DNA of 64,000 nt from Sinohyriopsis cumingii. Taxonomy: Eukaryota > Mollusca > Bivalvia > Unionida > Unionidae. Of this stretch, positions 6,171-24,984 are shown piece after piece. Position 1 is the stretch's first letter, and the number at the start of each line of letters is the position of its first letter. The DNA lies in assembly GCA_028554795.2 (NCBI GenBank), contig CM068831.1, positions 61,436,769-61,500,768 on the forward strand. The letters are read 5' to 3'. The position numbers were made by a program, and so were the translations under genes. Under the pieces are notes generated by a model. It was not told where the DNA came from. It saw only the letters and a program-made list of their open reading frames with translations, and searched no databases.

Positions 6171-6495
6171 AGTATAGCGGGAGTGTATAGCGTCAAGGGG
6201 ACTTTAATGTTAAAAAGGGGTATATCCACTATAGCGTCTATGTAAATTTAACATGGGAGCACAGGATATCCACTATAGCGTCAAGGGAAATTTAACATGG
6301 GAATATATCGTGGAACTGTATAGCATCAAGGGAAATTGAAATGGGAATATATTTTGGGTCTGTATAGTGTCAAGAGAAATTGAACATGGGAGATATAACA
6401 CAGACAATAGACAACAAACTATTTTTTAAAAGAAATTAGGCAAGAAAGTTAATTTCTTTTCGAGACATAGGAGGGGCCCTGAAAAGGGCCTTTGG
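6171..6495 (+). repeat. Polinton left terminal inverted repeat
   Basis: The sequence begins AGTATAGCGGGAGTG and matches in reverse complement the right terminus ending at 24984. It contains five direct units of about 44 bp, starting TATAGCGTC or a variant at 6186, 6230, 6274, 6319 and 6363. The inner end carries a histone-type hairpin at 6475-6490. Confidence 0.95.
6475..6490 (-). promoter_or_regulatory. Histone-type 3'-end stem-loop SL1
   Basis: On the minus strand the sequence is GGCCCTTTTCAGGGCC: a 6-bp stem with a TTTC loop, fitting the metazoan histone mRNA consensus GGYYCTTTTCARRGCC. It is preceded by CCAAA as in histone genes. Thirteen nucleotides after the stem comes GAAAAGAAA (6452-6461), resembling a histone downstream element that pairs with U7 snRNA. 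It lies downstream of the small gene at 6.5-6.9 kb. Confidence 0.75.
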
Positions 6496-6496
6496 C

Positions 6497-6889
6497 TTCC
6501 TCTTCTAATTTCTTCTTTTTTCCACCAACTTCTTATTTTCTCTCCTACACTTTATCTTCTTCTCCTCCTTTTCCTTTCTCTTTTTTATCCTTCTTCCCCT
6601 TCTCCTCCTCTTTCTTTATCTCCTCATTTTCTTCTTCTTTTTCAATTTGTTCGTTCCATGCCATCATCCTTATTCTTTCCTCTTCATTCTACTTCTCCTC
6701 TTTTTCTTTCTTAAGTAGATCACTTATCATTTCCTTTGATTTTCTTAAGTTGTTGATCTCCATCTTCACTCGATGGGGACTATAAGAATAGTGATCCTCG
6801 TTTAGGTTAACTAACATTTGCTCAATCATGCCCAAATTGTCAAGGACGTCTTGCAATTTTTTCATTTTGTCAAGTTGGGTTGAAGCCAT
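6497..6889 (-). pseudogene. Polinton small accessory gene, cassette 1
   Basis: The gene starts with MASTQLDKMKKLQ. The start ATG lies about 55 bp after a TATA-like element and a conserved upstream box. The product is small, charged and predicted helical, with leucine spacing suggesting a short coiled coil, then a lysine/glutamate-rich tail. I do not recognise the family. It is the first of three consecutive minus-strand cassettes sharing promoter box and 3' hairpin. The function is unknown; position and shared regulation suggest an accessory (early-type) protein rather than a virion part. The coding region appears broken. Confidence 0.5.
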
Positions 6890-6940
6890 CTTCTTTGCGC
6901 TAATTCCGTAGAATGGCGCGAACGACGAACGCTGTGAGTT

Positions 6941-6976
6941 CTTATATGTAAAGCACGGACGTGAAGGACAACATCC
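6941..6976 (-). promoter_or_regulatory. Promoter of cassette 1: conserved box plus TATA-like element
   Basis: On the plus strand the box reads CACGGACGTGAAGGA and lies beside a TATA-like TACATATAAG on the minus strand. The same box recurs at 8216-8244 and 8973-9000, each time just upstream of a small minus-strand gene. Between copies the box is far better conserved than its surroundings, so it is a credible shared promoter element. Confidence 0.7.
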
Positions 6977-7000
6977 TTTACTTTTCTCATATTATCTACT

Positions 7001-7490
7001 ATCCACACAGAAGTGAGGAGACAAATAATTAACCAAAATATACCATCCACACACGGGAGAAGCTAAAAACATAACCACAATCTACTATCCACACACGATA
7101 TCATGTCAAATCAAACCCAAAATTTACCATCCACACACGCCAAAATGCAGAAACAAACCCACAATCTACTATCCACACACGATATCATGTCAAATCAAAC
7201 CCAAAATGTACCATCCACACACGCCAAGAAGCAGAAACAAACCCACAATCAACTATTCACAAACGCTGATACGCCCAATCAAACCCAAAATTTACCATTT
7301 ACACACGCTGAGAAACTAATAACCTGACCACAATCTACTATTCACACAAGCGGAAATGCCAAATCAAACCCAGAATCTCCTATCCACACACGCGAAGCAC
7401 CATAAATATAATTATAATCTACTATCCACACAAACGTACGTGAGTGCTTACAATCCCTAATAATCTACTATTCACACAAACGTACTTGAT
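7001..7490 (+). repeat. 42-bp minisatellite inside the Polinton (about 12 units)
   Basis: The core ATCCACACACG or a close variant recurs at 7001, 7045, 7087, 7129, 7171, 7213, 7255, 7297, 7340, 7382, 7424 and 7470. The spacing is exactly 42 bp across the central units. Because 42 is divisible by three, the plus strand stays open over part of the array (7103-7327) as 14-residue repeats. I see no other sign that it is coding. The array fills the space between cassettes 1 and 2. Confidence 0.9.
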
Positions 7491-7629
7491 CTCTTTCAAT
7501 CTTTAACACACACATAAACACACACACACACACAATCACACCAGGAAAGGAGTGAGTATTTATATTCACACTACTCCACACTCACACTATTGGTAAATTG
7601 AATAGTGTTTCTTTTCTAGAGTTTTGGTT

Positions 7630-7645
7630 AGCCCTGAAAAGGGCT
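7630..7645 (-). promoter_or_regulatory. Histone-type 3'-end stem-loop SL2
   Basis: The minus strand reads AGCCCTTTTCAGGGCT: a 6-bp stem and TTTC loop, with an outer A-T instead of G-C pair. It is followed by AACCA and, 13 nt after the stem, GAAAAGAAA (at 7607-7617). It ends the cassette-2 gene. Confidence 0.7.
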
Positions 7646-7649
7646 GTTT

Positions 7650-8152
7650 TTTTTTGTTTTTTTTTTTGAACTCCAGATGCACCGATCTAATGCGGGCATC
7701 TCCCAGGTCTGGCACCGCAGACACATCTCCTACTCCAATCTCCTTGCCAATTCACCCTTGTGGCTGGGAGTGCATAGGCGGGTTGAGTGGCTTCACTATC
7801 CCAATCTTCTGTCTCTGGGATAGTGAAGACTTTCCTCTCTCTTCTCCTATTTCTAACTCGAGGATGAATTGGCATCCTTACCTCCTGTGTGTGTTGTAAC
7901 GGTTGTGTCTGTGACTATGGTGCAGCTACTGGTTGTGGTACTCAAAGTAGTTGTGGAGGTGTCAATGGCTTCACCTCATGCACAGGTCTCATCATTATGT
8001 GAGACCTGACCCCTCTCTTCTTTTCCTTCTCTTCTTTGTTTCTTCTCTGCTCCTCCTCCTCTTTCATTATTCCTTCTTCCACAATGGCCTCCGCTGCCAG
8101 CATATTCCAGGTGCATCTGGAGTTCCAAAATCTTCGCTAGTCTGCTGCTCAT
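7650..8152 (-). pseudogene. Polinton small accessory gene, cassette 2
   Basis: The gene starts at the ATG at 8152 (MSSRLAKILELQMHLE), following a TATA-like GATATAAATA and the conserved upstream box. The N-terminus resembles that of cassette 1 in being a short amphipathic helix rich in leucine. The middle is basic and glutamate-rich. It is unrecognised. It is probably one of a family of related accessory proteins with cassettes 1 and 3, although sequence identity is low. The gene appears broken. Confidence 0.45.
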
Positions 8153-8206
8153 TTTTTAAGCTGTTAACGAATCAACAGGGGTAGCCAGACTGCCGAGTGT
8201 TTCCGT

Positions 8207-8244
8207 ATTTATATCAAAAGCACGGACGTGAAGGAAAACATCCC
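8207..8244 (-). promoter_or_regulatory. Promoter of cassette 2: conserved box plus TATA box
   Basis: Contains CACGGACGTGAAGGA next to the minus-strand TATAAATA. The downstream leader also shares GCCAGACTG with cassette 3. Confidence 0.7.
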
Positions 8245-8489
8245 CTAAGACCCAAAACTTATATTACCTACATCATCACCGAAAAATGCTCGGACCTAAA
8301 AGAAACACTCACTCCCTTTTTTTACTGACCATCACTTTTTTAATTTATTTTGCTAATCACTTAACGAAAATGCTTATGCATGCACTTTCTAACCAAGATA
8401 AAGAATTCATGCGCTTATAGAAGCACTTCTAATTTGTTCCTAACATATCATAGGCAATGGATTGTTATTTCTTTTCTAGAGCATGGGGT

Positions 8490-8505
8490 AGCCCTGAAAA
8501 GGGCT
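8490..8505 (-). promoter_or_regulatory. Histone-type 3'-end stem-loop SL3
   Basis: The minus strand reads AGCCCTTTTCAGGGCT, then TACCCCA (like the ACCCA at histone cleavage sites). GAAAAGAAA follows 14 nt after the stem (8467-8476). It lies 35 nt beyond the stop codon of the cassette-3 gene. Confidence 0.75.
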
Positions 8506-8539
8506 GTTTTTTTGTGTGAACGAGGAGAATGGCAATCTT

Positions 8540-8935
8540 TTAGGGCCTAAGAGTGCGACCTCCTCTGGCGACAATCTTTCTCACAGGATAAGGTCTGCTT
8601 CTTCGGAAAGAGAAGGAGAACTCTTTGGTGTCGACACGACAGTCAACAAAGCCTCTGTCAGGTTCAGTTTGCTGCTGCTGCTGCTGCTGTTGCTGCTCTC
8701 TCTGTTCTCTCTGCGGTTTCTGAAGTCTGTACTTCTCCGTCCATTCTTCTTTTTCCCTGTTAATTTCTTCTCTGAAGAGCTCTTCTATCAGGTGTTCAGT
8801 GACTTGTATCATTCTGACATAGTCTATCTCTTCAGGCTTTGGTATCAGGCTTCGCCTGATACGATGCAAATTGACATAGGCTTTGTTCAGATTAGTTAGT
8901 CTTAAGCACATCTTCATAGGAGGATGAGTCAACAA
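8540..8935 (-). CDS. Polinton small accessory gene, cassette 3 (131 aa, looks whole)
   Basis: This is an open reading frame of 131 codons starting with MLTHPPMKMC. The N-terminal half is helical and leucine-rich (residues about 10-60, including IQVTEHLIEELFREEINRE). A run of nine glutamines lies at about 83-92, followed by a basic C-terminal tail. I do not recognise a family. The ATG lies about 30 bp after a TATA-like CATAAAAACG and the third copy of the conserved upstream box, and the histone-type hairpin SL3 follows the stop. Promoter, length and 3' end make it the clearest example of the cassette design. Its cellular role is unknown. Confidence 0.6.
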   Translation of the reverse strand: MLTHPPMKMCLRLTNLNKAYVNLHRIRRSLIPKPEEIDYVRMIQVTEHLIEELFREEINREKEEWTEKYRLQKPQREQREQQQQQQQQQTEPDRGFVDCRVDTKEFSFSFRRSRPYPVRKIVARGGRTLRP

Positions 8936-8960
8936 TGGATGGCCAGACTGGAGACTGTAC

Positions 8961-9000
8961 CGTTTTTATGGTAAAAGCGCGGACGCGAAGGAAAACATCT
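8961..9000 (-). promoter_or_regulatory. Promoter of cassette 3: conserved box plus TATA-like element
   Basis: The plus strand has GCGCGGACGCGAAGGAAAACATC, in line with the boxes of cassettes 1 and 2; the minus-strand TATA-like ATAAAAA is adjacent. A short leader segment matches cassette 2. Confidence 0.65.
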
Positions 9001-9132
9001 CTACATGGTGTTCGAGTCGGAACGCTAAATTAGTGTAATGTGAGGGATAGAGAGAAATCAAAGAGCATGAATCATGATACCCATAGCAAAACAAACGACA
9101 AAGGCATTTTTTCTTCTTCAAAACACAACATG

Positions 9133-9138
9133 TTTATT
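9133..9138 (-). promoter_or_regulatory. Polyadenylation signal of the capsid transcript
   Basis: AATAAA on the minus strand, about 65 nt beyond the last codon of the gene at 9202-9525. No histone-type hairpin is present here, which contrasts with the accessory cassettes. Confidence 0.5.
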
Positions 9139-9201
9139 CAAAAATAACTCATCACTAACAATACCCAATTTTGTGTTCAACAATAACCATTCAATATAAC
9201 A

Positions 9202-9525
9202 TTAAAACAGGTGATAATAAGTGATCAATTCGATCCTGACTTTCTCTTGGAAAATGTCTGACAAGTAAAAGGGTGTTAGCTCCGACTTCGTACCCTTGTC
9301 CAAGAGAGTTTCGATGCGACGGATCTCCAGAGGCGTTAATGGAGGACACGAATGTTCACGGAAGCCTTTATACCACTCATTCAACACGAATTCTTCCGAG
9401 ATGAGACTCCAAGTTTTTTGCAGATGCTCCTCCAATTTTTCTTCTTGACTCAACATCAGACATTTATCGTGTTGAATTTGGCTGGGATGATCGTTGTGAC
9501 ATCCATAGCAATCTTTTTTGATCAA
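9202..9525 (-). CDS. Small cysteine-motif protein of the Polinton capsid cluster
   Basis: About 107 codons with an N-terminal CYGCHNDHPSQ...H...C motif, followed by a helical region (EEKLEEHLQKTW) and a C-terminal segment ending ITYYHLF. A small protein with this CxxC-HPSQ-H-C pattern recurs next to capsid genes in animal Polintons. Its function is not known; zinc binding is possible. The gene sits directly downstream of the major capsid remnant and probably shares its transcript, which has an AATAAA at 9133. Whether the first codons are complete is unclear. Confidence 0.5.
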   Translation of the reverse strand: MIKKDCYGCHNDHPSQIQHDKCLMLSQEEKLEEHLQKTWSLISEEFVLNEWYKGFREHSCPPLTPLEIRRIETLLDKGTKSELTPFYLSDIFQEKVRIELITYYHLF

Positions 9526-9529
9526 TTCC

Positions 9530-10242
9530 TTTTTTTATCTCCCAGGACTGTAGCAAAACAGCCGGCTAAATGTACTTCTTGTTCTGGCCATCGGGATTTC
9601 ATCATTGTGCTACGATTCAGTCTCAGGCGGATATCCACTCCATTCAGCAAATACTTTTCTTGTAACCACACGTCCAAATGCAAAGAGATCTAACAGTCTT
9701 AAACTACGTCCTTGCAGAATTTTCTTACGACGGTCATTGAACCCTACATTGTGATGATCGTCATCTGCTGTCAGGGTTGTGTCGTTAAACGTGTCAGGTT
9801 TCCATACCACGCAAGCATCCATATGAGTATTCTTGGCTTCTTTTCCGTACGTCGAGAGATTTCCCAGCTACGATTGATAAGGGTAAGTATCAATGCTGCT
9901 GCTGACCAGTTTGTTATTCAAGTACAAGTCTACTTCGCTGAACAAGGAATTAATGAAATTGTTGACAGGAGCTACTCTAGCAACGTCTGCGGGATTAGTG
10001 TTGTCCGTTTTGATCACTTTGACTTTCAAGTACAGGTAACTGCTATTCAGATCAATGTAATCTTCGGGCTGACCTTTGATATCAAATTCGATGGGAGCTG
10101 AATCCGTCAAAGAGGAGACGGGATGAAATTCGACCCACTGGGATTCTTTCATCGTCATCATGGTAGGTGGCATGGCAAACAGATCCAGTTCCGACTTGGA
10201 ACAGACGCAAGACTCTCGGTGCATCATTTTTCTGTTTCTCAA
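9530..10242 (-). pseudogene. Polinton major capsid protein (double jelly roll), broken
   Basis: The N-terminal part is highly characteristic: SELDLFAMPPT, then WVEFHPVSSLTD, GQPEDYIDLNSSYLY and VNNFINSLFSEVDLYLN. This matches the start of Polinton/adintovirus major capsid proteins, which form the pseudo-hexagonal shell of an icosahedral particle. Further downstream segments such as DRRKKILQGRSLRL also fit the family. The gene follows the capsid-associated gene at 10247-10636 on the same strand, the usual order. It is a fossil with several interruptions. Confidence 0.85.
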
Positions 10243-10246
10243 TACT

Positions 10247-10636
10247 TTAAAAATAAAAAACGGCTAAGTCTCGAGCAGTTCTTCTTTTATTTGTCTTTCT
10301 AGCTTTAGAAGTGTGAAGTCTTGTGAAAGGGTGTTTTTCTCGTCGTCTTTTTCTGCCTTGTCCTTGCTGTCTCGTCAGGGAAGTAGGAATGCCTGACTCA
10401 CTACCGCTCAGGGCATTTATAGGAGTTTCTCGCCGACCCAAAAGGTCTTTACCCGTTTGCAACAAGACATTTTTGCCTGCTCTCAAGAATGCTTCTTTAG
10501 GGTTTTGTTTGTCGATGATGACATTTTGGAGAAATTCTTTACCTTGTGTCAATGCGGCATCTTTCAAGGCGTGCAATTCGCGTGTCACCATCGGTTTAAA
10601 CACCGGGGCCACCGAACGAAAGGCCGATTTTAACAT
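10247..10636 (-). CDS. Polinton capsid-associated basic protein
   Basis: About 129 codons (MLKSAFRSVAPVFKP...). The N-terminal half is amphipathic helical; the second half is strongly basic (GRKRRREK, ARKTNKRRTAR). Proteins of this size and character are encoded between penton and major capsid genes in animal Polintons, and have been compared with adenovirus core or minor proteins that bind DNA or membrane. Placement between the penton and major capsid remnants supports the assignment. The frame looks whole, but I cannot establish function from the sequence. Confidence 0.6.
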   Translation of the reverse strand: MLKSAFRSVAPVFKPMVTRELHALKDAALTQGKEFLQNVIIDKQNPKEAFLRAGKNVLLQTGKDLLGRRETPINALSGSESGIPTSLTRQQGQGRKRRREKHPFTRLHTSKARKTNKRRTARDLAVFYF

Positions 10637-10669
10637 ATCTCCTAAACCATATCCTCGCTGTCTAGCAAC

Positions 10670-11490
10670 ACGTCAGTACACTGGATACATGACTTACAAC
10701 TCGTTAGAGAACCGTTTTCGAAAATGGAGTTTCACCGTGACTTTTCCATTGGTGAATGAAATATTTTGTCCCAGATCTCCTTTTATAGCAATGTTAACAG
10801 TGGCAAAATACGACTTACTGACCGGCAAATAATACGGATGCATAAATACGCGGTGAACGTGATAGGTGTTTCCACTTTCCTCGTCCGTGGCCGTGGCAGA
10901 ATCCACTTTGAAAGGAATGACACGCAGTAACGGTACCGAGGTGTGTCCCACCACGTTTTACTTCACCACATCGGAGTATACAAAGATCAAATTCAGTCCT
11001 TGGTTCATTTCTACTGGGAAACGAAATAACTTGCTAAAAGAATCGTTGTCGGAAATGACTGGTAATTCGTTTTTCTTCATCATTGCCATCCTCATCTCCA
11101 CGTCCCCGCCCAAAATGTCAAACAATTCAGGACATGATTTTACCCCCGTCAAATTTCATCAGGAAGCGTCGAGCTACTTTGTGGTACTCAAGTGTGACAC
11201 TTTTTCTGATACTTTCCAAAGCTTTAAGAAACACGATATTAAACCTGGAGGCAATGGTGCTCACCAAATGTTGACCACTAAAATAATAGCCTGGGGGAAT
11301 GATCAAGTGATAGGTCCACTTTTAAGCTTGCTCATGATATGTTTTATTGTAACTTTTTAAATTATTCAAGTACTTTTACATTTGCTCGTCATGAACTTCG
11401 ACCGTAAAATAATTTTGATTGGGAAGGACATTGAGGACTTGGGTCGCGTGAATAATTTCCACTAAAGCTACTTACCAATAGGCTTCGTGA
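10670..11490 (-). pseudogene. Polinton penton/minor capsid protein (single jelly roll), broken
   Basis: Recognisable segments include IIPPGYYF near the middle and, at the C-terminal side, FPVEMNQGLNLIFVYSDVV, VGHTSVPLLRVIPF, HPYYLPVSKSYF and SFTNGKVTVKLHFR. These match the Polinton penton, which occupies the vertices of the particle. It lies between the membrane-segment protein (11492-11908) and the basic capsid-associated gene, in the standard order. Several interruptions. Confidence 0.8.
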
Positions 11491-11491
11491 T

Positions 11492-11908
11492 CTAATTGGA
11501 TGGCCTGAGGTAATTTATCTGTGTAACAGCACAACGTTTTATTGGGAAACACGTCCATGGAACTGTCACTGGGTAAGGTTCAGTAAAATTGGTTATGGTG
11601 ACTCTGTGGCTGTCCGAGGGGTTATTGGAAGTCAGAGGCGTGTCTCCGCCCAAAATGGGGTTGTTGTTGTTGTTGGAGTGGTGACTGGAACTGGACGCAA
11701 GATTCCCGTTGTTCCCGTTCGAGGAGAATTTCAGAGAGGGATTGGGAAGCAGGTTACCGATGCAACTGCTCAATAAAATGGTCCACAAGTTTTTGTCTCC
11801 TTGTTGCAAACTCAAATTGGCAATGGCTGAACCGATGACACAATACACCGCAACGATTTGGCAGAAAAAGACGATTTGCGTTTGAGGCACACGTTCTCGA
11901 CACCACAC
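11492..11908 (-). CDS. Polinton small membrane-segment protein
   Basis: About 138 codons. The N-terminal third carries a hydrophobic segment (IVFFCQIVAVYCVIGSAIANL) followed by LLSSCIGNLLPNPSL, a pattern seen in a short membrane protein located between integrase and penton in many animal Polintons. The centre is low-complexity (a run of asparagines, serines and histidines). Likely a membrane-inserted virion or assembly protein; that role is inferred from position and hydrophobicity. Confidence 0.5.
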   Translation of the reverse strand: MWCRERVPQTQIVFFCQIVAVYCVIGSAIANLSLQQGDKNLWTILLSSCIGNLLPNPSLKFSSNGNNGNLASSSSHHSNNNNNPILGGDTPLTSNNPSDSHRVTITNFTEPYPVTVPWTCFPIKRCAVTQINYLRPSN

Positions 11909-13102
11909 TCACATGGGTTGTTTCTGTAAATCTTGCAGACAAGAAATGGGTGAAGGAGTGGTAGCAGTAGCTGAGTCTGTGTGAAAGGGCATGATGGTCA
12001 CTTTTTTATAGTCGATGACTTGTGAAGCGTCGATCCAAGAATAAAAACTGGATGGATATCTTTTCCAACGTACTTTAACTTCTTTGACACGTCGTTTGCC
12101 CACTTTACGGATTCTGCGTTCGAGAATGCTTTCGATGTCGTACACGTCTTCTTTTTTGGTGACACGTTGTAACTCGGGTAAGTAAAACGTTCCTTTTAAC
12201 ACTTCTCCGTTCATGTCTTCCAATTTATAGACGGCAGGATGACGGCCTTGCACTCGTCCAGTGACACAAAACAATTCGGTGGTCAAATTAGGTAAGTAAC
12301 CTTTGTCAAAAGTACATTTGCTTTTGCTAATGCGCACCCAATCTCCTACGACCAACACTCCACTTTTCTTGGGGACAGCCCCCGTCGGGACGTAACAAAC
12401 AGGCGATCGGAAACCAGCACTTGGTTGTCGGGAGTCACCTCTTGCGGGGCACGTCCAATGCTTCGATGGTAAGATTGGTTGTACGCTTGCACCAGGTGCG
12501 GTAAGATGTCGATGTACTTCAGAGTATGGTGATGCGTAAAATATTTCCACATGCGTTCTTTCAAGGTACGTTGAAAAAAGTTCCACGATTCTGGCTTTGG
12601 TTTCAGGATTCTCGGTGGTAAAAAAATGAATGTCACGTTTCTTTAATTCGTTTTGGAAAGCTTGGTTCAGAAATTCGGTACCTTTGTCCGGTTGCCATCG
12701 AAGAGGCTGACGACCACTTTGTTTCAGCACACGTTGCAGGGCTCACAGTAACTCTTTGCTCGATTTGGAAGTCAATGGCACGACCCAGGCAAATTTGAAA
12801 AAGACGTGGATGACACAAAACAAATATTTGTAGCGGCCATTGTAGGTGGCCAAATGAGAGACATCGGCTAAATCGGCTTGCCATTGATGATCGATGCCTT
12901 CCACTTGGGTGCGACTTCTGGAAAAGTTGCGTCGAATGGGTTTGTGTAAAGTGTAGGTAGCTTGTTCTTGTAACCATCGTTGCACTTGAGGTAAACGGAG
13001 ACTTTTCAGTCGAGTTTTTGCAGCACGATACAATTTTTGAACTCCTCCGTAACCGGCAGGATGGGATGGATCGTAGTAAATGCCGGCTAACTCCTTTTCC
13101 AT
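11909..13102 (-). pseudogene. Polinton integrase (rve core with C-terminal chromodomain), broken
   Basis: The domain order on the minus strand fits Polinton integrases. An N-terminal zinc/HTH-like part (YYDPSHPAGYGGVQKL, VQRWLQEQATYTLHKP) is followed by the DDE core (WQADLADVSHL, FCVIHVFFKFAWVVPL, DKGTEFLN). At the C-terminal side is a chromodomain-like segment (VYDIESILERRI, VRWKRYPSSFYSWIDA). The chromodomain may have directed insertion to marked chromatin. Several interruptions make it inactive. It is unrelated in detail to the integrase fossil at 2.9-3.8 kb. Confidence 0.92.
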
Positions 13103-13109
13103 TTTTTTT

Positions 13110-13460: not shown

Positions 13461-13464
13461 GGTC

Positions 13465-13735: not shown

Positions 13736-13739
13736 GTCC

Positions 13740-14154: not shown

Positions 14155-14247
14155 CTTTGAGTCTTCAGGAGCACAAAAACACTGATACCCCTGCTTTATC
14201 TCAGGTCTTTTTTATACCGGAACGCGTCGCCCCTGATTGTCTTTACG

Positions 14248-15090: not shown

Positions 15091-15109
15091 GGGGGTTAAG
15101 TCGAGGACG

Positions 15110-15878: not shown

Positions 15879-16612
15879 TTAAAAATGAACACGAAAGACA
15901 AAAATACATAAAAGCCAAAGGCTTAAGGACAACGATAAAATGCACATGAAAACGATCAAAATGGAACAGAAACAAGTCTCTGTACATGTTTTGGGTAATG
16001 GTTTGACAAGTTCTACAGGGGGTAATGTCACACATGTGTCCTCCTGAAAGGGTCTTTCAGGAATGTCCATGACAGTCCTGTCCTGGGTGACGGGTTCTTC
16101 TGACACTGACTCTAACACAGGTTGAAAAGTTACTTTTTTCTTTGGACGCTGAAAGGAAGGATTACAATTCTCGGGTATACTGGGCCACTTCTTGGGTCCA
16201 AGTCTCAAAACCCCATTTTTTCCAGTCACGTACATCTGTCCAATGGGGGTGTAAGTCACAAGCTACATACACATCGTCATACACGTCTTCGTTAGCTAAA
16301 AGTTGACGATTCTTTTTTTCCCGTAGATATCGAGAAGTATCTAGATGAAAACGCAAGGCTTTGAGCAAAATGAGTCTCTCGTGACAATTTAAGGCCATTC
16401 GGGTGGTAAGTACTTTCGTAAAGAGTCCACAAGGAATCGGCGGAGAAACGAAATCCCAGAAAACAAGTCACAAAGACACACACCACTTGTCGACCCAAAT
16501 TCAACGGAAACAGTTCTTGTAATAATTGATGGTAAAGATTCACGGTTTGAATACTGTCATTGAGTTCCTTCCACGGAATCTGTTGAATCACTTTTGATAA
16601 AAGCCTTGGCAT
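15879..16612 (-). pseudogene. Polinton unknown genes (soluble part and membrane-anchored part)
   Basis: Two pieces can be seen. The upstream part starts MPRLLSKVIQQIPW and has a helical, aromatic-rich sequence including RYLREKKNRQLLANED. The distal part ends in a hydrophobic leucine/serine/cysteine-rich segment with a charged tail (SILIVFMCILSLSLSLWLL), a probable C-terminal membrane anchor. Family unknown. The start of the upstream part lies inside a 93-bp tandem duplication. Broken. Confidence 0.4.
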
Positions 16613-16766
16613 GGCAGCCTGTTTTTATACTCTCTTTTGTTGGAGGTAATAAGCGTACTTTCTGAACAGCATCTGTTGAATCACTTTTGATAAAAGCCTT
16701 GGCATGGCAGCCTGTTTTTATACTCTCTTTTGTTGGAGGTAATAAGCGTACTTTCTGAACAGCATC
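16578..16766 (-). repeat. 93-bp exact-type tandem duplication
   Basis: Two adjacent near-identical copies (16578-16670 and 16671-16763) carry the first codons of the MPRLLSKVIQQ gene and the last codons of the upstream gene (ending QQKRV). The absence of divergence indicates a very recent event. Confidence 0.9.
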
Positions 16767-17164
16767 GGTTTTATTTTAATTCCGTACCAATATGATTTAG
16801 TCACTAACTCACACACCACACGTCGTACAGAGGTTTCCTCTTCAACCAAGATTTCTTGGTGTAAAGGATGTTGGTAATCCTCTGTCTCGTCCGTTGGAAT
16901 TCGGTGTATTATGATCGTCTTGTAAGTAGAATTAGTGTCATCCAAAACTTTATGAATCTCATGAGAATCATCAATGTCCGACCAATGAAACACTTTGAAA
17001 TGAATCAGTGCCCTTATACCATTCAGGTACCAGTGGTTCAAACACCGGTGACGTAACGGATGCAATTGTTCTTTACGTTTGACTTGAATTTTGACCAGTT
17101 CTCGGTAAATTCGTTCTCTCAATTCTACAGGCAAACCACGAATGTTCTCTTGTAAAGTACCCAT
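16718..17164 (-). CDS. Polinton paralogue B of an unknown family (148 aa)
   Basis: About 148 codons beginning MGTLQENIRGLPVELRERIY. The first 60 residues are nearly identical to those of the neighbour at 17.17-17.62 kb. The IRGLPxELRERIYREL stretch resembles an F-box-like helix pair, which would suggest recruitment of a ubiquitin ligase, but similarity is short and this is only a hint. The C-terminal half has diverged. The last codons fall in the 93-bp tandem repeat. Confidence 0.5.
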   Translation of the reverse strand: MGTLQENIRGLPVELRERIYRELVKIQVKRKEQLHPLRHRCLNHWYLNGIRALIHFKVFHWSDIDDSHEIHKVLDDTNSTYKTIIIHRIPTDETEDYQHPLHQEILVEEETSVRRVVCELVTKSYWYGIKIKPMLFRKYAYYLQQKRV

Positions 17165-17624
17165 AATAGGTCATACTAAATCCTCTTTTTTGGAAGCAAT
17201 AAATGTACTGTCTACACAGAGATGATTTTACTACAGTAGCGAATCTAAAAGGTTCAATCACTAACCTACAAATCACAGTTCGTTCAGCAATTTCCTCTTC
17301 CACTAAGTTGACGTTGCGTAAAAGATTTTGGTAACTCTCTAACACTTCTTCTGGAATTCGTTGCAGTATGTGAATCTCGAAGTAACGAAAATAATTAACA
17401 TACCGTTCCTTCTCGTCCTCGAACCGTTTAACAAGGTATGACCACTGGAACACTTTCGTGTGAATCAGTCCTCTTATAGCATTCAGGTACCAGTGGTTTA
17501 AACACCGGTGACGTAACGGATGCAATTGTTCTTCACGTTTCACTTGAATTTTGAACAGTTCTCGGTAAATGCGTTCTCTCAACTCCGCAGGCAAACCACG
17601 AATGTTCTCTTGTAAAGTATCCAT
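17165..17624 (-). CDS. Polinton paralogue A of an unknown family
   Basis: Begins MDTLQENIRGLPAELRERIY and is clearly a tandem duplicate of the gene at 16718-17164: N-terminal part and central motif RHRCLNHWYLN are shared, with more divergence towards the C-terminus (RRIPEEVLESY-like region). The possible F-box-like N-terminus is the only functional hint. It lies just downstream of the BIR-domain gene, suggesting a block of host-interaction genes. Confidence 0.5.
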
Positions 17625-17631
17625 TCAGGGA

Positions 17632-18262: not shown

Positions 18263-18439
18263 TGTTCGCTTGGTCTTGGTAGTCACAATGAACTATCGAT
18301 CTTGCATATTGTCTCTTTTTATACTAGTCGCAATGAAGTCTCAAGCTTGTACATCGTTCCTTTTTTATGTCTAGTTTGGAAGGTATCATCTCTAAGGTAC
18401 CGTCATAATTGTACCGTAGTGTAATGGGTGGAAAGGCGA

Positions 18440-18610
18440 TAGAAAAGTAAGGACAGTACGGAGACTATCGAGTATGTTCCAGAATGGCTCAATCTTTATA
18501 GATACATAGATCCATTCGTAACTTCAGGCCACAACTGAAACACTGTACTTCGTATCCCAATCCAGTCTCAGGTCCCAAGTAGACAAATCCTGTTCTAACT
18601 AAAACATTCG
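18440..18610 (-). pseudogene. Second, decayed BIR-domain fragment
   Basis: Reads FVYLGPETGLGYEVQCFSCGLKL-type sequence, i.e. the core of a BIR domain with its CxxC, followed by LEHTR-like and a terminal cysteine. It is a paralogue of the BIR gene just downstream and more degraded. It abuts the end of the polymerase gene. Confidence 0.65.
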
Positions 18611-21600
18611 AAGTAGGTAAAATCCTTCCCTATCCATGGGCCGTTTTTGAAACCTTTCCAATCGATGGGCACAATCACAACAGTCAGGCAAGAAGACCGG
18701 AAAATGGTAGGGTTTGAACTTGGAGTTCTCATTGTGTCTCTCACTCGATTCTTTCTGTGGCGAAGTCATTCTTCTGGTGGGTGGATATCCTCTTACAACC
18801 AATGTTTTATACCAACATGTCCATACGGCAACGTAAAATGATTGGGAAGCCTCACTCGCTTCTGGTACACAATTTGATAAACTTTTTTCCAAAGTTTGAC
18901 TGACGATTTGGTGAGTGGGTAAACGTACAATCTTATGCGGTTCACGGGTGGTCACTTTAAAGTGTTCATCCTCTCCAGATTGCAAGGCTTCTTTCAATAC
19001 CCCAAAGTTGACCACTCGACTGGTGCGATAATTCAGAGTCAATCCTTTCACTTTACACTCCGTGTGCACTTCTCCTTGTTTGTCCCGGTATTCGTAACCG
19101 TAATTTTTAGGACCGCCACTCGCGAAACTTAAAATTTTCTCGTTGGGCTGCTCGTCTGTCCAGGCTCCTAAACGGTCTCCTTCGATGTCAGGGTGATGTT
19201 GACCTGAGCACTCGATGTAAATGCAACTGTCTGTGTCAAAGTACAGGACGCGTTCCCCTAACAGTTCTAAAGCTTCGTACAATTTTAAACGAGCATGAGC
19301 TGTCATGTAAGCCGCAATGATGACATTTCCAAATTCGTCGGCGTCTACAAAGTCCAGATCTTCTTCGTAATTGACTAAGATCAAATCCTCGCGAACGACG
19401 TCCACGTGTTTCATGTATTTGGTTTGGTAGTGAATCATCTGGAAGTAGCGAGAAGGTTCTGTCAAATACTCCGTCTTGGGTAAACACGGTCGTTGTGCCA
19501 TTTTGCCCCACAAGCAATTTAACATCACTTTGGCAAAACGATCGCCTGCCTTCGTTTTTCTCGATGTAGTCTAAAGCGATGCCTTCTTGTGACCAGTATT
19601 TGAATTTCCTTTCGTCTTCGGGAGTGTGACACCAGGAAGGATAGCCACTGGCCTCTTGCTTCATTTTCAAAAAAGTATCCACGTAGTCTGCGAAAATGCC
19701 TTTCTGAGTAGGGTCACCCCTCTGGTATTGTTGTGTCTTGGGAAAATGGTAAATTTCGTACACTTCTAACGGTTGGTATCCCATGTCCAGAGCTTTAAAC
19801 AATTCTACGCTGACCCACGTTCCCGTCAAGGCGCGTTCTTCCTGAGTGTGCTGACAAGACTGGTCTTGGTTACACGTTTCGGCACATGTACGGCACAAGG
19901 GAAACATCAGTTTGCCTTGGCAATGGTGAGGTATCACGGGATGGTACAAGTCCGTGGGAGGCAAGACTTTGTACTTGATCAAGCCTTTTATTGTCGAATG
20001 TGGTCCAGGTCGATGTGTTCCGTCAGCAATTGCGGGTGGCCTGAAGGAAAGCGACAATATTTACACACGTAGGGATACAGTGAGCACACGTCCAAGTATT
20101 TGATTTCTTCTCCTTTCTCTTCGTCGGCTTGGTACAGCAAACAGGTCCACCCACTGGTAACTTTCCACGATACGTTTAAACTCGGGATCGGTTTTCAAAC
20201 GTTCGTACTTTGTTCCCACATTTCCACCACTTGGTATCCTTGCTGTTCTAACTTCAAACGTAGCTGACAAGTGGACTGGTACAAGTCTTCCATGGTTTCT
20301 TGTAAAAACTAATTTTTAGGGTAGCAGAGGGGACATCCGTGAAATAAGCAACCGTTAAACTCGTACACGATCTTGGGGTTTTCTAAGTCCCAGCCATCCA
20401 TGAAATACGTTCCGATGGTCTTTTCGCCTCTTGCGTTGCGGGCGAGCTGAATCCATTTGTCTTCCTTGTCACACAAGTAATGTAACCAACGTAGGGTTTT
20501 GACCGAGTATTGACGTTTGACAAAGTTGGTCGTTTGAGGGATGATGACAGCCAGGGTGTTTTCGGGCATGAATCGTTGTCTGTACACTAAGGAGCACGCT
20601 TTGACAATGGTGCAAGCTTCTTTCAAAGGATGACCCCACCGTGTTCCATGAACAGTTCTCGAAATTTTCCACAGCAACGCCGTAAAATGTCCACGTCGGA
20701 ACGACAATACTTTAACATTTCTTCCTGAAAGTCCAAAGGGTCAGAGGCATGGTCCTGGTACGAAGCGTAGACAGCTTCCCATTGTTCGGTACGCATGTTG
20801 TTGCGGTCGTAGTCTTTAGTCTCAGGCAAATGAGGTAGAAAGGTAAGTTGATTGGCTTCGATATTGAAAAAGTGAGGAAAATACCCTTTAGCCATTTCTG
20901 TCATTCCCAACGTTTTAGGAATTCGACTCAAAGGCATGACCAAGTAGCTCATCGAATCTTTAAACTGTACTTGTCCCATCTGCATGCCTTGTTCCGTATA
21001 GTACCTCAAAAGAAACTGTCCATCGTATCCCGAGACATTGTGGGCCATCACCGTGGCATGGCGATGACAATCTCCATAACGTTCGATGTCCTCTTGGCTC
21101 CACGTATCGTCGATGGGGTCTAAGATCAATTGAGCGAAATCGGCTAACGTGTTCGGTCCCCGAAAGATTTTTTCACGTCCTCCAGGAATCTTGTTGCAGT
21201 GAGGGCAATGACTAAAGATAGGTTCTTGGATGCAATTCTCGCACGTCCGATGAGCCATGCAGAAATTAGGAATGTGTATGCCGGTCTCTTGCATGCATTC
21301 AAAATCGAAAAAGATGAAATTCCCTTTCTTCTTGTGGTCCTCATTTTCCTCTTGTTGGGGTTGATATTTTTGGCATGTAGCATTGGTGTTCCAAGTCCAT
21401 GATTTGGTGACAAATGTGACATTTTTTCTTTCCTGGACATACGTGTGCCTTGGCATTATTGGTACGTATGCCTTGTCCACAGGTAGGACACAATCTCAGC
21501 AGTTGACAAGCACATTTCTGTTGTGAACCTTTCGTCTTTAAATGTTTTTGGTAACAGGCAGGGCTGACAAAAGTGCGCTGACAAGCTGAACAATGTACTC

Positions 21601-22738
21601 GTTCTTGTTCTTCGTCCAGACAGGGTTGAGAGGCCAAACATCCTGAGCATTTCGATCTACAACGTTTGTGTTGCTCTCGATTGTTATAGCCATAGTCACA
21701 TTTCTCACAGTAATATTTGTATCCCAGGAATCCGGTGATGGTGGTAATGGTATCGAAATGCTTGTTGTGATGATAGACATGAATGTATTTTCCGTCCTTA
21801 AAATCTTGGCCTCGAAACAACAGAGACCCGCGCACTTCTTGAGGGTGCACTTTCAAGGTGTAGCGTGGAGCTAGGACATCTTTCAATTTTTGCATTTCAG
21901 GAATGCCACAGGGTGTGTATTTGGACTGCCCGGCTTGTTGTAACAGGAGTTCTGCTTCATTTCGTTGTTTGGCTCGGTCCGATTGTTGAATAGTTTTCAA
22001 GGCTCTTTTCCATTCTGCCGTGTCGTTCTTGTTGGCATAGGTTCGTCCCACCACGATATCCCTGGCTAAACACATCTGGTCTTGAGGGTTGTTAATTCGG
22101 ACGAGTCTACGCTTAATGTTACGAAGGTCGTCCACCAATAACACCTTTTTGCGTTGTCCGGTCCCTTGAGGAGGAGAGACGTGGGTCACGGACAGTGTGG
22201 CTTTGCCATCGATGATGTGAAACTGGTCATTGGATTATTGTATGTGTTGGATCTTGTCCATGACTTTGGATGGAATCAATTCTGCAGGGCTGCTAAACTC
22301 GATCCAAACCGGGGATTTCAAACTGTCTTGTTGTATGGAAAGGCTCAAGCGATCGTCTTCTTTGGCCTCACATTGTCGTTTCAGTGTGGTTAGCAAAGAA
22401 TCCCACATTTCGGTGATGAAGCCCTCTGCTTTCTCCAATGGTACGTCGGACTTTAAATATTTAAACTTCACCGTGTAGGTGTAAGCCATGGTTCTAAATT
22501 GTCTAGAGGAGCGCTTTTCGGTCTCTCGAATATGATAGCACTTTCCAGGGTTTACTAAGGGTGGTGAACTTGAACTGGGTGCAGAATCGCTGGGTTTGGA
22601 ATCTGGTTCACTCATGTCATTTTCAAAATCACTGGCATGAATTTGTGCCAAGACTTCAGCGATGGTACGAGGCGATAGATCACGTTTCTGCCTCTTACTT
22701 TCTTCTTCTTTCTTCACGAATTGATTCGATCGTTTCAT
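18599..22738 (-). pseudogene. Polinton DNA polymerase B (protein-primed type), broken
   Basis: The gene spans about 4.1 kb. Exonuclease motifs are clear in the first half: FFDFEC (Exo I), HNVSGYDGQFLL (Exo II) and YCRSDVDILRR (Exo III). Ahead of them is a cysteine-rich zone (CEKCDYGY, CSGC, CSACQ) that may bind zinc. In the second half are the family-B motif around LNCLWGK and the catalytic YFDTDS (motif C). The N-terminus starts MKRSNQFVKKEEESKR and is basic and serine-rich. The enzyme would replicate the element by protein priming. About six interruptions. A TATA-like TATAAAG (22786-22793, minus) precedes the start. Confidence 0.95.
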
Positions 22739-22785
22739 CTTGACTGCAAAAAGTCAAATGACTACATGTTAAACACCATGGGTCA

Positions 22786-22822
22786 CTTTATATCCATGGC
22801 AGCCCATCATACATTTATAAAG
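22786..22822. promoter_or_regulatory. Divergent promoter between polymerase and zinc-knuckle genes
   Basis: Two TATA-like elements face away from each other: TATAAAG on the minus strand at 22786-22793, serving the polymerase, and TTTATAAAG on the plus strand at 22814-22822, serving the rightward gene. Confidence 0.5.
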
Positions 22823-22875
22823 GGTGTCTTTCTTGTCCCTCCACTATTCATTTCACTCTCAAACCGATCAGAACA

Positions 22876-23350
22876 ATGGAAGAGCCTACACAGATCGAAC
22901 TTTTCATCAGATTTGCGAGGGGTCATCAGAAAATGTTCTTCAGACAAGCCGACGGACTACTCTCCCTCCTTTCGAGATAAAAGTCAAGATACTTGCTATA
23001 TCTGTAAGAATAAAGGGCATTGGTCTTCAGAGTGTCCAGACCGTCAAAAAAGCAAAACAGGGGTTAGAAGAGACAAAAGTCAAGATACCTATCATCATTG
23101 TCAAGAAAAAGGACATTGGTCTCCAGATTACCATAAGAAACAACAGAAGCAAGAAGAAGAAGAGAGGAATTATGAAGAGAAAGAAGAGGTACCTTCCCCC
23201 AAAGAAGAACCCAGACACGTGCAGAAAGAGAAACAGGAGAAGAAAAGAAGAAGGGGAGAAATTGAAGAATTGGAGGAAAAAACTGTGAAAGTGAAGAAAT
23301 TCAAAAATCAGAGTGAAGACAGACAGAAGAAGTTTATGAACTTTTTATAG
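22876..23350 (+). CDS. Polinton zinc-knuckle protein (rightward gene)
   Basis: The plus-strand open stretch encodes a CCHC zinc knuckle (CYICKNKGHWSSEC: C-x2-C-x4-H-x4-C). A degenerate second knuckle follows (HHCQEKGHWSPD), then a long acidic/basic charged tail ending KKFMNFL. CCHC knuckles bind single-stranded nucleic acid. A plus-strand TATA lies at 22814-22822, and an ATG near 22876 follows it, but the correct start is uncertain. It is the only larger gene opposite in direction to the core genes. Function unknown; a replication or RNA-binding role is possible. Confidence 0.55.
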
Positions 23351-23547
23351 TGATTATGTTGTGAATTGAATTGTAAAAAATTTCTACCAGAATAGAAGAG
23401 GCATAAAACGTAAGTGTCTCTTAGTTGTGATTTTTAGAATAAGAACCTACACTCACGCACTCACACACACAATAAGGTAAAAAGAGCTTTTTGAGTTTTA
23501 ATTGATGTTGGCAATTGAAATACTATCTCTTTTCGAGAGAAATGGGT

Positions 23548-23563
23548 GGTCCTGAAAAGGATC
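23548..23563 (-). promoter_or_regulatory. Histone-type 3'-end stem-loop SL4
   Basis: The minus strand reads GATCCTTTTCAGGACC, one stem mismatch, TTTC loop. It is directly followed by ACCCA, the canonical histone cleavage context, and by GAAAAGAGA 13 nt after the stem (23526-23534). It lies downstream of the small gene at 23.59-24.18 kb. Confidence 0.7.
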
Positions 23564-23589
23564 TTTGGGTAATTTGTTGATTTAAACAA

Positions 23590-24181
23590 TCAACTTTAAC
23601 TGTCTTAAGCCTTTGCCACAGCCAAGGCCTACCTCTGGACTGTGTACTATCGATGATGATTTGGTAGAAATCAATAAGGGTGATATGGTAGGTGCAGTCA
23701 CAGGGTTGGGTTGTTTAGCTCAGGAAGGTCTTTTTCTCTTCGGTCGTAATAAAGAAGTCTGATACATTTGTTTCAGACTTCTTAAGTTCGCTAAAATGTC
23801 TAACAGTACCGTGACAGTTTGACTTTTGCACCATTGTTTCTTTGCTGCTTCTTCTTCTTGTTTCTTTCTTACCTCTTCTTCTTGCTGCTGTTGCTGAAGG
23901 AGAAAAGCTTGTTCTGCTTTCTTTTACTGCTGTATAAATTACTCCAATTCTTCTTTCTCTCTCTGTTTAAAATTTTCCACGTGTGTTAAAGAAGGAGAAA
24001 GTGGCGAAGGTACTGATTCCAGAACAAATTGTTGCGAGGTAAGAAAATCCACAAAATCCTAATTCAAATTCACCTCTTCTGGAAGTAAGTCTGGGTTCCC
24101 TTGGGTAGTCAATGCAATTCCGTCGCTTTTCGTTGCCACGGCCGGTGCACCCCAATTCATCGTCTTTTGAGTTTCCGTCAT
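23590..24181 (-). pseudogene. Polinton small accessory gene near the right end (leftward)
   Basis: Starts MTETQKTMNWGAP at 24181, about 50 bp after a TATATAG element (24231-24238, minus). The product begins with a polar acidic segment; downstream the coding region is rich in glutamine, glutamate and lysine (a likely coiled coil) and ends near a histone-type hairpin. No family recognised. It shares the architecture of the left-end cassettes. Broken. Confidence 0.45.
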
Positions 24182-24230
24182 GTTTGAAAACTGTGTCGCA
24201 TGGATTGACTGCGCACAGACGCTAGCAGCT

Positions 24231-24358
24231 CTATATAGGGAATGTGACATCACAGACTGCTCTCATCGGATTGGACGAGTGATGACTGAATTTTGTAACG
24301 CGTGTTTGGATTGGTCAATGAAATCAATCCGTTTCGATCCTCCCTTCCCCTATAAGTA
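24231..24358. promoter_or_regulatory. Bidirectional promoter with two TATA boxes and CCAAT motifs
   Basis: TATATAG on the minus strand (24231-24238) and TATAAGTA on the plus strand (24351-24358) are about 115 bp apart. Between them are ATTGG (inverted CCAAT) motifs, at GGATTGGAC (about 24268) and GGATTGGTC (about 24308). The layout fits a shared promoter for the gene at 23.59-24.18 kb and the short gene at 24401. Confidence 0.5.
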
Positions 24359-24400
24359 ACTGCAGTTCGCTGCATTCCTTCACTTGTTCTCGTCACCAAC

Positions 24401-24535
24401 ATGTGGTCTGACGTAGAATCCTCTGCTCTCGTCTCTTCAATGCTGTTTCGTACGGACTTACCCATGTATATCCGATCATCATGGACTATTGTCAGGATGA
24501 CAGATACAAGTGTGTGGAAAAGAAAATCTATGTAG
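24401..24535 (+). CDS. Polinton 44-codon gene at the right end
   Basis: A short open frame (MWSDVESSALVSSML...WKRKSM) starts 43 bp after the plus-strand TATA at 24351. It is followed at 24662-24677 by a perfect histone-type hairpin on the same strand, in the right terminal repeat. No family recognised. It is listed because promoter, ATG and 3' hairpin line up as in the other accessory genes. Confidence 0.4.
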   Translation: MWSDVESSALVSSMLFRTDLPMYIRSSWTIVRMTDTSVWKRKSM

Positions 24536-24656
24536 AAAGACAAGGCTGTTTAAAGAGGATTTTAATTTACAGACCAGACGTGAGATAATGTTCGAGGAAA
24601 AGAAGAAGACCTAAGCGATGCCCTCTATGTTAACATGGAATAAGGTTAACATAAAC

Positions 24657-24984
24657 CCAAAGGCCCTTTTCAGGGCCCCTCCTATATCTCGAAAAGAAAC
24701 TGACTTACTTGCCTAATTTCTTTAAAAAAATGTCTGTTGTCTATTGTCTGTGTTATATCCATCTCCCATGTTCAATTTCCCTTGACACTATACAGACCCA
24801 AAATATATTCCCATTTCAATTTCCCTTGATTCTATACAGTTCCACGATATATTCCCATGTTAAATTTCCCTTGACGCTATAGTGGATATCCTGTGCTCCC
24901 ATGTTAAATTTACATAGATGCTATAGTGGATATACACTTTTTTAACATTAAAGTCCCCTTGACGCTATACACTCCCACTATACT
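24657..24984 (-). repeat. Polinton right terminal inverted repeat
   Basis: This is the reverse complement of 6171-6495, with about 14 differences by eye. It carries the same five 44-bp internal units in opposite order and a perfect 16-nt histone-type hairpin at its inner end. Confidence 0.95.
24662..24677 (+). promoter_or_regulatory. Histone-type 3'-end stem-loop SL5
   Basis: Plus strand CCCAAAGGCCCTTTTCAGGG plus GCC: perfect 6-bp stem with TTTC loop and histone-like CAAA leader. GAAAAGAAAC follows 13 nt after the stem (24691-24700). It is the mirror copy of SL1. Confidence 0.75.

What the first reader, a model, noticed from the sequence alone, without database searches (positions are those of the whole stretch)
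6452..24700. Polinton accessory genes appear to end with histone-type mRNA 3' stem-loops
Seen: five 16-nt hairpins (6475, 7630, 8490, 23548 minus strand; 24662 plus strand) share a 6-bp stem and TTTC loop. GGCCCTTTTCAGGGCC, in both terminal repeats, fits the metazoan histone consensus GGYYCTTTTCARRGCC, with CCAAA before it. SL4 is followed by ACCCA, as at histone cleavage sites. In every case GAAAAG(A/G)A lies 13-14 nt after the stem, where a U7-binding histone downstream element belongs. All five stand downstream of small accessory genes in the correct orientation; the capsid side has an AATAAA instead. Known: replication-dependent histone mRNAs use this signal, are not polyadenylated and are bound by SLBP in S phase. 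Inference: the element ties an accessory gene set to S phase and to histone processing factors. I know of no such description for Polintons, but could not search.
Basis: partly seen in the sequence, partly recalled or inferred. Interest (0 to 1): 0.93.

Follow-up and report, generated by a model that had tools for sequence, protein, structure and literature searches.

The report
Polinton genes with histone-type mRNA ends
The small genes at both ends of a virus-like mobile element in an animal genome carry the special end signal otherwise known from histone messages, matching the host's own histone genes in sequence and spacing, which suggests that the element borrows the host's histone RNA-processing machinery.

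Summary
Rfam Histone3 (RF00032) gives five matches in the 19-kb Polinton (30.5-25.6 bits, all below the 34-bit cut-off); this copy is decayed. In the host's 2.9-Gb genome the 75 scored Histone3 matches (45.6-34.5 bits) all lie in copies of this Polinton (75 of 75), typically GGCCCTTTTCAGGGCC-ACCCA with GAAAAG 13 nt on, and usually 15-30 nt after the stop codon of a small ORF (58 of 82). The one host histone unit read (H1, H2A, H2B, H3, H4) ends in the same kind of stem-loop with GAAAAG 13-14 nt on in 5 of 5 genes. Partner hairpins not chosen by score mostly have a full stem (B 16/20, D 20/26, E 22/23). A distant Polinton (L021), found through its polymerase, also has one (35.8 bits). Stem pairs covary. 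The structural half that I checked has none. Not shown: transcripts, SLBP or U7 binding, absence of poly(A), S-phase timing; host U7 was not found. My literature searches found no such report for a virus or transposon.

The parts
6450..6495 (-). SL1: histone-type 3' end after gene A (CCAAA, stem-loop 6475-6490, GAAAAG 6456-6461), inside left terminal inverted repeat
   Evidence: Rfam RF00032 30.4 bits, E 3.2e-5
7604..7650 (-). SL2: histone-type 3' end after gene B (stem-loop 7630-7645, first pair A-U; GAAAAG 7611-7616)
   Evidence: RF00032 25.6 bits, E 0.0019
8465..8510 (-). SL3: histone-type 3' end after gene C (stem-loop 8490-8505; GAAAAG 8471-8476)
   Evidence: RF00032 28.6 bits, E 1.5e-4
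23523..23568 (-). SL4: histone-type 3' end after gene D (stem-loop 23548-23563, A.C mismatch at pair 2; ACCCA; GAAAAGAG 23527-23534)
   Evidence: RF00032 27.1 bits, E 5.6e-4
24657..24702 (+). SL5: histone-type 3' end after gene E (stem-loop 24662-24677; GAAAAG 24691-24696), inside right terminal inverted repeat
   Evidence: RF00032 30.5 bits, E 2.9e-5
6689..6889 (-). gene A, 66 aa here (129-132 aa in genome copies such as L026 and L041)
7976..8152 (-). gene B, broken here (58 aa; up to 150 aa in copies)
8540..8917 (-). gene C, 125 aa, no Pfam family over its cut-off
24059..24181 (-). gene D, first 40 codons before an in-frame stop; the rest down to about 23590 carries further stops (182-196 aa in long-ORF copies)
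24401..24535 (+). gene E, 44 aa here (76-78 aa, Arg-rich C-terminus in copies)
6950..6975 (-). shared promoter box of gene A (same box upstream of B and C, nowhere else in the window)
   Evidence: 3 matches at up to 3 mismatches, shuffles 0
8217..8242 (-). shared promoter box of gene B
8974..8999 (-). shared promoter box of gene C
24182..24400 (.). divergent promoter between D and E: CCAAT boxes, CRE-like TGACATCA, two TATA-like sites
   Evidence: in 43 genome copies: >=2 CCAAT 42, CRE-like 40, TATA for E 43, TATA for D 36
6170..6394 (+). left terminal inverted repeat (pairs with 24761-24985)
   Evidence: 97% complementary
24761..24985 (-). right terminal inverted repeat
18599..22075 (-). DNA polymerase B region, split over several frames (decayed copy)
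   Evidence: PF03175 3.3e-7 in 20623-21456
12743..13102 (-). integrase piece, no histone-type 3' end
   Evidence: 34% identity over 119 aa to the rve integrase of L021, E 3e-25
9868..10227 (-). capsid-protein piece (by likeness to L021), no histone-type 3' end
   Evidence: 34% over 108 aa to L021:4113-5399, E 8e-20; that this family is a capsid protein rests on recall
9133..9138 (-). AATAAA after the structural-side ORFs

Best explanation
The small genes at both ends of this Polinton end in genuine replication-dependent-histone-type 3' ends: a stem-loop bound by the host's SLBP and, 13 nt on, a downstream element that pairs with the host's U7 snRNA, so that the pre-mRNA is cleaved after ACCCA and is not polyadenylated. 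Shown by sequence: structure, sequence, spacing, covariation, conservation across diverged copies, likeness of the downstream element to that of the host's own histone genes, position just after stop codons, restriction to the terminal accessory genes in the window and in one further copy. Inferred: SLBP/U7 recognition and cleavage. Inferred one step further: the accessory proteins are therefore made in S phase, when host replication factors are available to the element.
For: RF00032 matches in the window. 75 of 75 scored Histone3 matches of the host genome lie in copies of this Polinton, 45.6-34.5 bits. The host histone unit L097 carries the element after H3, H4, H2B, H2A and H1, 35.0-39.4 bits, GAAAAG 13-14 nt after the stem in 5 of 5. 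Over 127 hairpins located by coding homology, ACCCA follows the stem in 100 and GAAAAG starts at +13 in 108. Unselected partner hairpins: full stem in B 16/20, D 20/26, E 22/23; AAAAGA or AAAGAG at +10..+26 in 19/20, 26/26, 20/23. In E copies the stem-loop is 99.5% and the HDE core 96.4% pairwise identical, spacer 80-83%, flanks 72-84%. Stop-to-stem distance 15-30 nt in 58 of 82 hairpins. A copy picked by polymerase alone has both D and E hairpins (41.2 and 35.6 bits). Distant Polinton L021: 35.8 bits, found by polymerase. Covariation: pair 1 G-C/A-U, pair 3 C-G/U-A, 5 cells changed on both sides; 0 of 500 shuffles reach the covariation score. ACCCA/ACCCACA are the known cleavage sites (PMC6303110, passages); AAAGAG is the known HDE purine core (PMC7026596, passages).
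Against: No RNA data. Host U7 not found (Rfam 0 matches, 65 of 801,960 candidates scored; pattern 4 matches against 9 in the reversed control; the two loci read are no U7 by their sequence). The presence of an SLBP gene in the host could not be tested (tool busy). The five window matches are under Rfam's cut-off. 12 of 127 hairpin rows have AATAAA/ATTAAA within 60 nt upstream and 14 of 127 within 100 nt downstream. In the D set the hairpin is not more conserved than its flanks (95% against 86-97%), so there it is uninformative. In the covariation test the number of pairs changed on both sides (2) was reached by 74 of 500 shuffles and the number of pair types by all 500. In E copies ACCCA follows the stem in only 28 of 46.
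Confidence: 0.87

Rival explanations
1. The 3' ends are used as histone-type ends, but for tail-less storage and translation in oocytes or early embryos, or to save space, not for S-phase timing.
For: Nothing in the sequence dates expression; D/E promoters carry CCAAT, CRE-like and TATA sites that are not specific to S phase.
Against: In animals the signal is tied to S phase for histones (PMC5011920 passage); shared machinery implies shared timing.
Confidence: 0.22
2. The hairpin binds SLBP (mRNA stability, export or an SLBP sponge) but cleavage by U7 snRNP does not occur.
For: In E copies the stem-loop is the best conserved part; SLBP alone would explain the hairpin.
Against: The downstream element is conserved as a second peak (E, less clearly B), at fixed spacing, and resembles the host histone element; SLBP alone does not need it.
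Confidence: 0.06
3. It is a DNA-level or transcription-terminator hairpin that only looks like a histone stem-loop.
For: The identical hairpin GGCCCTTTTCAGGGCC occurs in IMG/VR viral contigs (probably phages) with A-runs before it, as in intrinsic terminators; two window copies lie in terminal repeats.
Against: Five of those 13 loci match Histone3 at all, at 20.6-24.8 bits, and none of the nine printed hairpins has GAAAAG behind it; the Polinton ones are oriented with genes, sit just after stop codons, and share the host histone element.
Confidence: 0.03
4. Recent capture of a host histone 3' end by one element, without function, spread by copying.
For: Host and element share the downstream element.
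Against: Polinton copies match the animal-wide model better (up to 45.6 bits) than the one host histone unit read (35.0-39.4); a distant Polinton in another assembly has it too; B-type stems differ by a compensatory pair.
Confidence: 0.03

Closest known systems
Replication-dependent histone mRNA 3' end (Rfam RF00032 Histone3; SLBP / U7 snRNP)
   Same: 6-bp stem with UUUC loop, CCAAA before, ACCCA(CA) after, purine-rich downstream element 13 nt on, short 3' UTR, uninterrupted ORF in long-ORF copies, no AATAAA/ATTAAA within 60 nt upstream in 115 of 127 rows
   Different: The ORFs are not histones; they belong to a virus-like mobile element and are dispersed, not in the histone array
Polinton/Maverick elements and adintoviruses
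   Same: Terminal inverted repeats, PolB, rve integrase with chromodomain, Pox_A32-like ATPase, capsid-like protein
   Different: I found no paper that reports histone-type 3' ends for them (search listings)
Hairpin-marked mRNA 3' ends of mimivirus-type giant viruses (recalled)
   Same: Viral mRNAs whose 3' end is marked by a hairpin
   Different: There polyadenylated ends form at arbitrary palindromes (recalled); here one fixed host-type stem-loop plus host-type downstream element
Intrinsic terminators with the same hairpin in IMG/VR contigs
   Same: Identical 16-nt palindrome in 8 of 13 loci
   Different: No GAAAAG element behind it, lower Histone3 score, probably prokaryotic context

Membership tests
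Histone-type 3' end (RF00032) | Score over Rfam's curated cut-off (34 bits) | tested here: met
   Not met by the 5 window matches (25.6-30.5 bits); met by 75 of 75 scored genome matches, by L021 and by L101 (2 of 2)
Histone-type 3' end (RF00032) | 6-bp stem and 4-nt loop kept by compensatory change | tested here: met
   98.8% of 84 cells paired, 2 pairs with changes on both sides; covariation score reached by 0 of 500 shuffles, number of such pairs by 74 of 500
Histone-type 3' end (RF00032) | Purine-rich downstream element at fixed distance | tested here: met
   GAAAAG at +13 in 5 of 5 window copies and 108 of 127 genome hairpins; host histones at 13-14 nt in 5 of 5
Histone-type 3' end (RF00032) | Complementarity of that element to the host U7 snRNA | tested here: inconclusive
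   Host U7 not identified
Histone-type 3' end (RF00032) | Placed shortly after the stop codon, in gene orientation | tested here: met
   60 of 82 hairpins have an ORF of at least 40 aa ending 12-36 nt before the stem; 17 more have one ending 56-253 nt before it (broken or other frames), 5 none
Histone-type 3' end (RF00032) | mRNA cleaved after the stem-loop, not polyadenylated, SLBP-bound | not testable with these tools
   No transcript or binding data
Replication-dependent histone gene | Encodes a histone | tested here: not met
   Histone peptide motifs in 0 of 48 loci tested; all 75 loci match the Polinton by blastn; no histone family for genes A-E
Polinton/Maverick | Terminal inverted repeats, PolB, retroviral-type integrase, packaging ATPase, capsid protein | tested here: met
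   for the window (decayed; ATPase piece under Pfam's cut-off); L102 rve 2.6e-14, Chromo 1.1e-7, Pox_A32 1e-7

The most novel reading that the evidence does not exclude
Animal Polintons run a two-class expression programme: structural and replication genes with ordinary ends, and a terminal accessory module whose mRNAs are processed like histone mRNAs by SLBP and U7 snRNP, so that these proteins are made only in S phase and possibly at histone locus bodies. This would be the first non-histone class of animal protein-coding mRNAs, and the first viral one, known to end this way.
Probability: 0.55. Interest if true: 0.93.

Novelty: new variant of a known kind. Interest (0 to 1): 0.87.

Why it matters
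[quoted passage not shown] A second, mobile and virus-like class of genes with the same signal would break that rule, give Polintons, whose life cycle is largely unknown, a concrete cell-cycle link, and offer natural substrates for SLBP and U7 snRNP. It can be tested at once if total-RNA data of the host species exist. It also warns that Histone3 matches in animal genomes are not all histone genes: here all 75 that the search scored are in a mobile element.

Tried and rejected
Chance hairpins: rejected by shuffles. Bacterial-type terminator: considered because IMG/VR contigs hold the same palindrome; rejected for want of the downstream element and by the eukaryotic context. IMG/VR relatives: PolB piece, PolB alignment A2, capsid-like alignment A3, a polymerase-motif DNA pattern and two stem-loop-plus-HDE patterns gave no relative; the pattern CTTTTCAGGGCN{10,20}GAAAAGA gave 7 loci with no Rfam match at E up to 0.1. 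U7: Rfam search (0 matches), pattern (4 matches against 9 in the reversed control), two of the four loci read and rejected. The gapped U7 pattern, a genome-wide count of stem-loop plus HDE, copies of gene C and the SLBP family could not be run (tool busy). In one search, of the five 'A unselected' rows three are wrong assignments through polypurine sequence and one (L068) is the B hairpin again; the three are dropped from later counts. therefore counts 127 rows, one hairpin twice; one search sets that one aside, which leaves 127 rows including one hairpin with only 4 pairs. In one search the type labels are crude (L057, labelled A, is an E type). Searches held faulty expressions for the D/E promoter and were replaced.

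Limits of the counts: the 75 genome matches are the best of 589,472 first-look candidates, so young copies are favoured, also among the 'unselected' partners. The host histone array was not among those 75, presumably because only the best candidates were scored; it was reached through PF00125 (150 of 662 scored), and one unit of it was read.


Full report
WHAT WAS CLAIMED. Five hairpins in a Polinton are said to be histone-type mRNA 3' ends with a U7-type downstream element, placed after accessory genes.

THE OBSERVATION. All five are present. Four have a perfect 6-bp stem and one (23548) has 5 of 6 pairs. GAAAAG begins 13 nt after the stem in 5 of 5. Against all 4227 Rfam families the five best of 11 listed matches in the 19-kb stretch are all RF00032 Histone3 (30.5, 30.4, 28.6, 27.1, 25.6 bits; E 2.9e-5 to 1.9e-3), although all are below the curated 34 bits. 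Five hits of stem-loop plus GAAAAG compare with 0.017 per shuffle, at most 2 (300 shuffles). SL1 and SL5 are in the terminal inverted repeats and so count as one.

THE ELEMENT. It is a decayed Polinton: inverted repeats, PolB broken over several frames, an integrase piece, a capsid-like piece, an ATPase piece just under Pfam's cut-off. Genes A, B and C on the left share one promoter box found three times and nowhere else in the window. D and E on the right are divergent.

A CONTROL THAT COUNSELS CAUTION. IMG/VR contigs, probably phages, hold the identical palindrome as probable intrinsic terminators (13 stretches for the pattern; the exact palindrome printed in 8, a variant in 1). Five of the 13 match Histone3, at 20.6-24.8 bits, and none of the nine printed hairpins has GAAAAG behind it. 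The hairpin alone is therefore weak evidence; hairpin plus element plus place is what counts.

THE HOST GENOME. The window lies in a 2.9-Gb assembly. The Histone3 model scored 75 matches there, 45.6 to 34.5 bits, all over the cut-off. I fetched 3 kb round every one: 75 of 75 lie in copies of this Polinton by blastn to its repeats and genes A-E, the long alignments 65-86% identical to the window copy. Many copies have longer ORFs than the window: E 76-78 aa, D 182-196 aa, A 129-132 aa, B up to 150 aa. Of 82 full-stem hairpins in 48 loci, 60 have an ORF of at least 40 aa ending 12-36 nt before the stem, 58 of them 15-30 nt; 17 more have one farther up and 5 have none. Some copies (for example L025, L036, L038) have a different gene in the A position and still the same hairpin. 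Over 127 hairpins located by coding homology, ACCCA follows the stem in A 12/12, B 15/20, D 45/49, E 28/46, and GAAAAG starts at +13 in A 10/12, B 17/20, D 47/49, E 34/46. ACCCA and ACCCACA are the mapped major and minor cleavage sites of histone mRNA in the literature (PMC6303110, passages).

UNSELECTED HAIRPINS. To avoid choosing hairpins by score, I looked at partner genes located by coding homology in the same loci: full stems in B 16 of 20, D 20 of 26, E 22 of 23; AAAAGA or AAAGAG 10-26 nt on in 19 of 20, 26 of 26 and 20 of 23. In E the stem-loop (99.5%) and the downstream core (96.4%) stand out over spacer (80-83%) and flanks (72-84%); in B likewise but less cleanly (94% and 92%, spacer 73-95%, flanks 82-92%); D is too uniform to tell (95% and 98%, flanks 86-97%). 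The copies still come from loci with one strong hairpin, so young copies are favoured. A copy picked by polymerase alone has both D and E hairpins (41.2 and 35.6 bits), and the 9 kb read on its structural side has none (n = 1).

THE HOST'S OWN HISTONE GENES. PF00125 led to tandem units of about 8.3 kb. One unit (L097) has H3, H4, H2B, H2A and H1, each followed by RF00032 (35.0-39.4 bits; the H3 end appears twice because the stretch spans more than one unit) and by GAAAAG 13-14 nt after the stem, TAGAAAAGA in four of five genes. The Polinton B type has TAGAAAAGA in 17 of 20; D and E have mostly TCGAAAAGA (29 of 49, 26 of 46). This is the strongest single piece of evidence: the element carries the host's kind of downstream element at the host's own distance.

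STRUCTURE. Over 14 sequences (5 window, 3 copies, 5 host histones, L021) 98.8% of 84 cells pair; pair 1 is G-C or A-U and pair 3 C-G or U-A, with 5 cells changed on both sides. No shuffle of 500 reaches the covariation score or that number of cells, but 74 reach the number of pairs changed on both sides (2) and all 500 the number of pair types; slid versions have no change on both sides.

A DISTANT POLINTON. A scan of the genome-contig collection with a PolB alignment gave one relative, L021, an animal-type Polinton contig in a MAG (best segment 36% identical). It has a Histone3 match of 35.8 bits just after a small C2H2 zinc-finger ORF, with AAAAAAGAGA from +12 on. It is the only match at E up to 0.001 in that 2.9-Mb MAG (150 of 547 candidates scored). 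The organism is unknown, and the contig ends near there, so that the ORF belongs to the element is likely but not proven.

MECHANISM. Most likely the host's SLBP and U7 snRNP process these pre-mRNAs as they do histone ones. Shown: anatomy, likeness to host signals, conservation, covariation. Inferred: binding, cleavage, lack of a tail. Inferred further: S-phase timing. What the proteins do is open; D has an invariant WDxVDFL motif and a PKRxRPSRAK stretch that looks like a nuclear localisation signal (17 sequences aligned), and 20 homologues in public contigs, and E has an Arg-rich end. Poly(A) signals near the hairpins are few but not absent (12 of 127 rows upstream, 14 of 127 downstream).

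NOT SETTLED. Host U7, SLBP gene, transcripts, and how many Polinton lineages share the trait.

LITERATURE. [quoted passage not shown] Searches for Polinton/adintovirus/transposon with histone stem-loop terms found no such report (listings only; of the 504 papers only 20 are listed). PMC11071296 (passages) mentions histone-like proteins in adomaviruses; its text has no 'stem-loop'. PMC6210712 (passage) reports stem-loops in bivalve histone mRNAs. PMC7026596 and PMC5011920 were read in passages. The library holds only open-licence papers, so absence there is not proof.

Noticed in passing
L021:7189-7695 (-): The distant Polinton encodes a TATA-binding protein (PF00352, E 1.2e-27) next to its integrase.
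   Followed up: no
window 24182-24400: D/E divergent promoter with paired CCAAT boxes, a CRE-like site and two TATA boxes, 208-222 nt long in 43 genome copies; recalls divergent histone gene pairs and adenovirus ATF sites (recalled).
   Followed up: partly
window 7015-7432: Array of 42-nt repeats between gene A and gene B; the terminal repeats themselves hold 44-nt repeats.
   Followed up: no
window 16718-17624: Duplicated ORF pair (193 nt, 89%) and a 93-nt near-exact tandem copy at 16573-16758; a similar ORF pair is in L102.
   Followed up: no
window 22766-23350 (+): Zinc-knuckle gene (PF00098, 2e-7) with no histone-type 3' end.
   Followed up: no
G000: This Polinton family looks very abundant in the host: 98 polymerase matches scored of 25,506 candidates, many with open frames of about 1350 aa; the one copy read belongs to the window's family, so the family may be recently active.
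   Followed up: partly
L097:2540-2599 (+) and L101:7121-7181 (-): The downstream element can fold a second small hairpin in host H2B and in a Polinton E copy.
   Followed up: no
IMG/VR loci L009, L011, L013, L015-L018, L020: Contigs, probably phages, with the identical palindrome GGCCCTTTTCAGGGCC as probable terminators; L020 also has hammerhead matches and a twister-like one under its cut-off.
   Followed up: no
window 36504-36576 (-); L101:4845-4917 (-): tRNA-like matches of 32-33 bits, possibly a tRNA-derived repeat.
   Followed up: no
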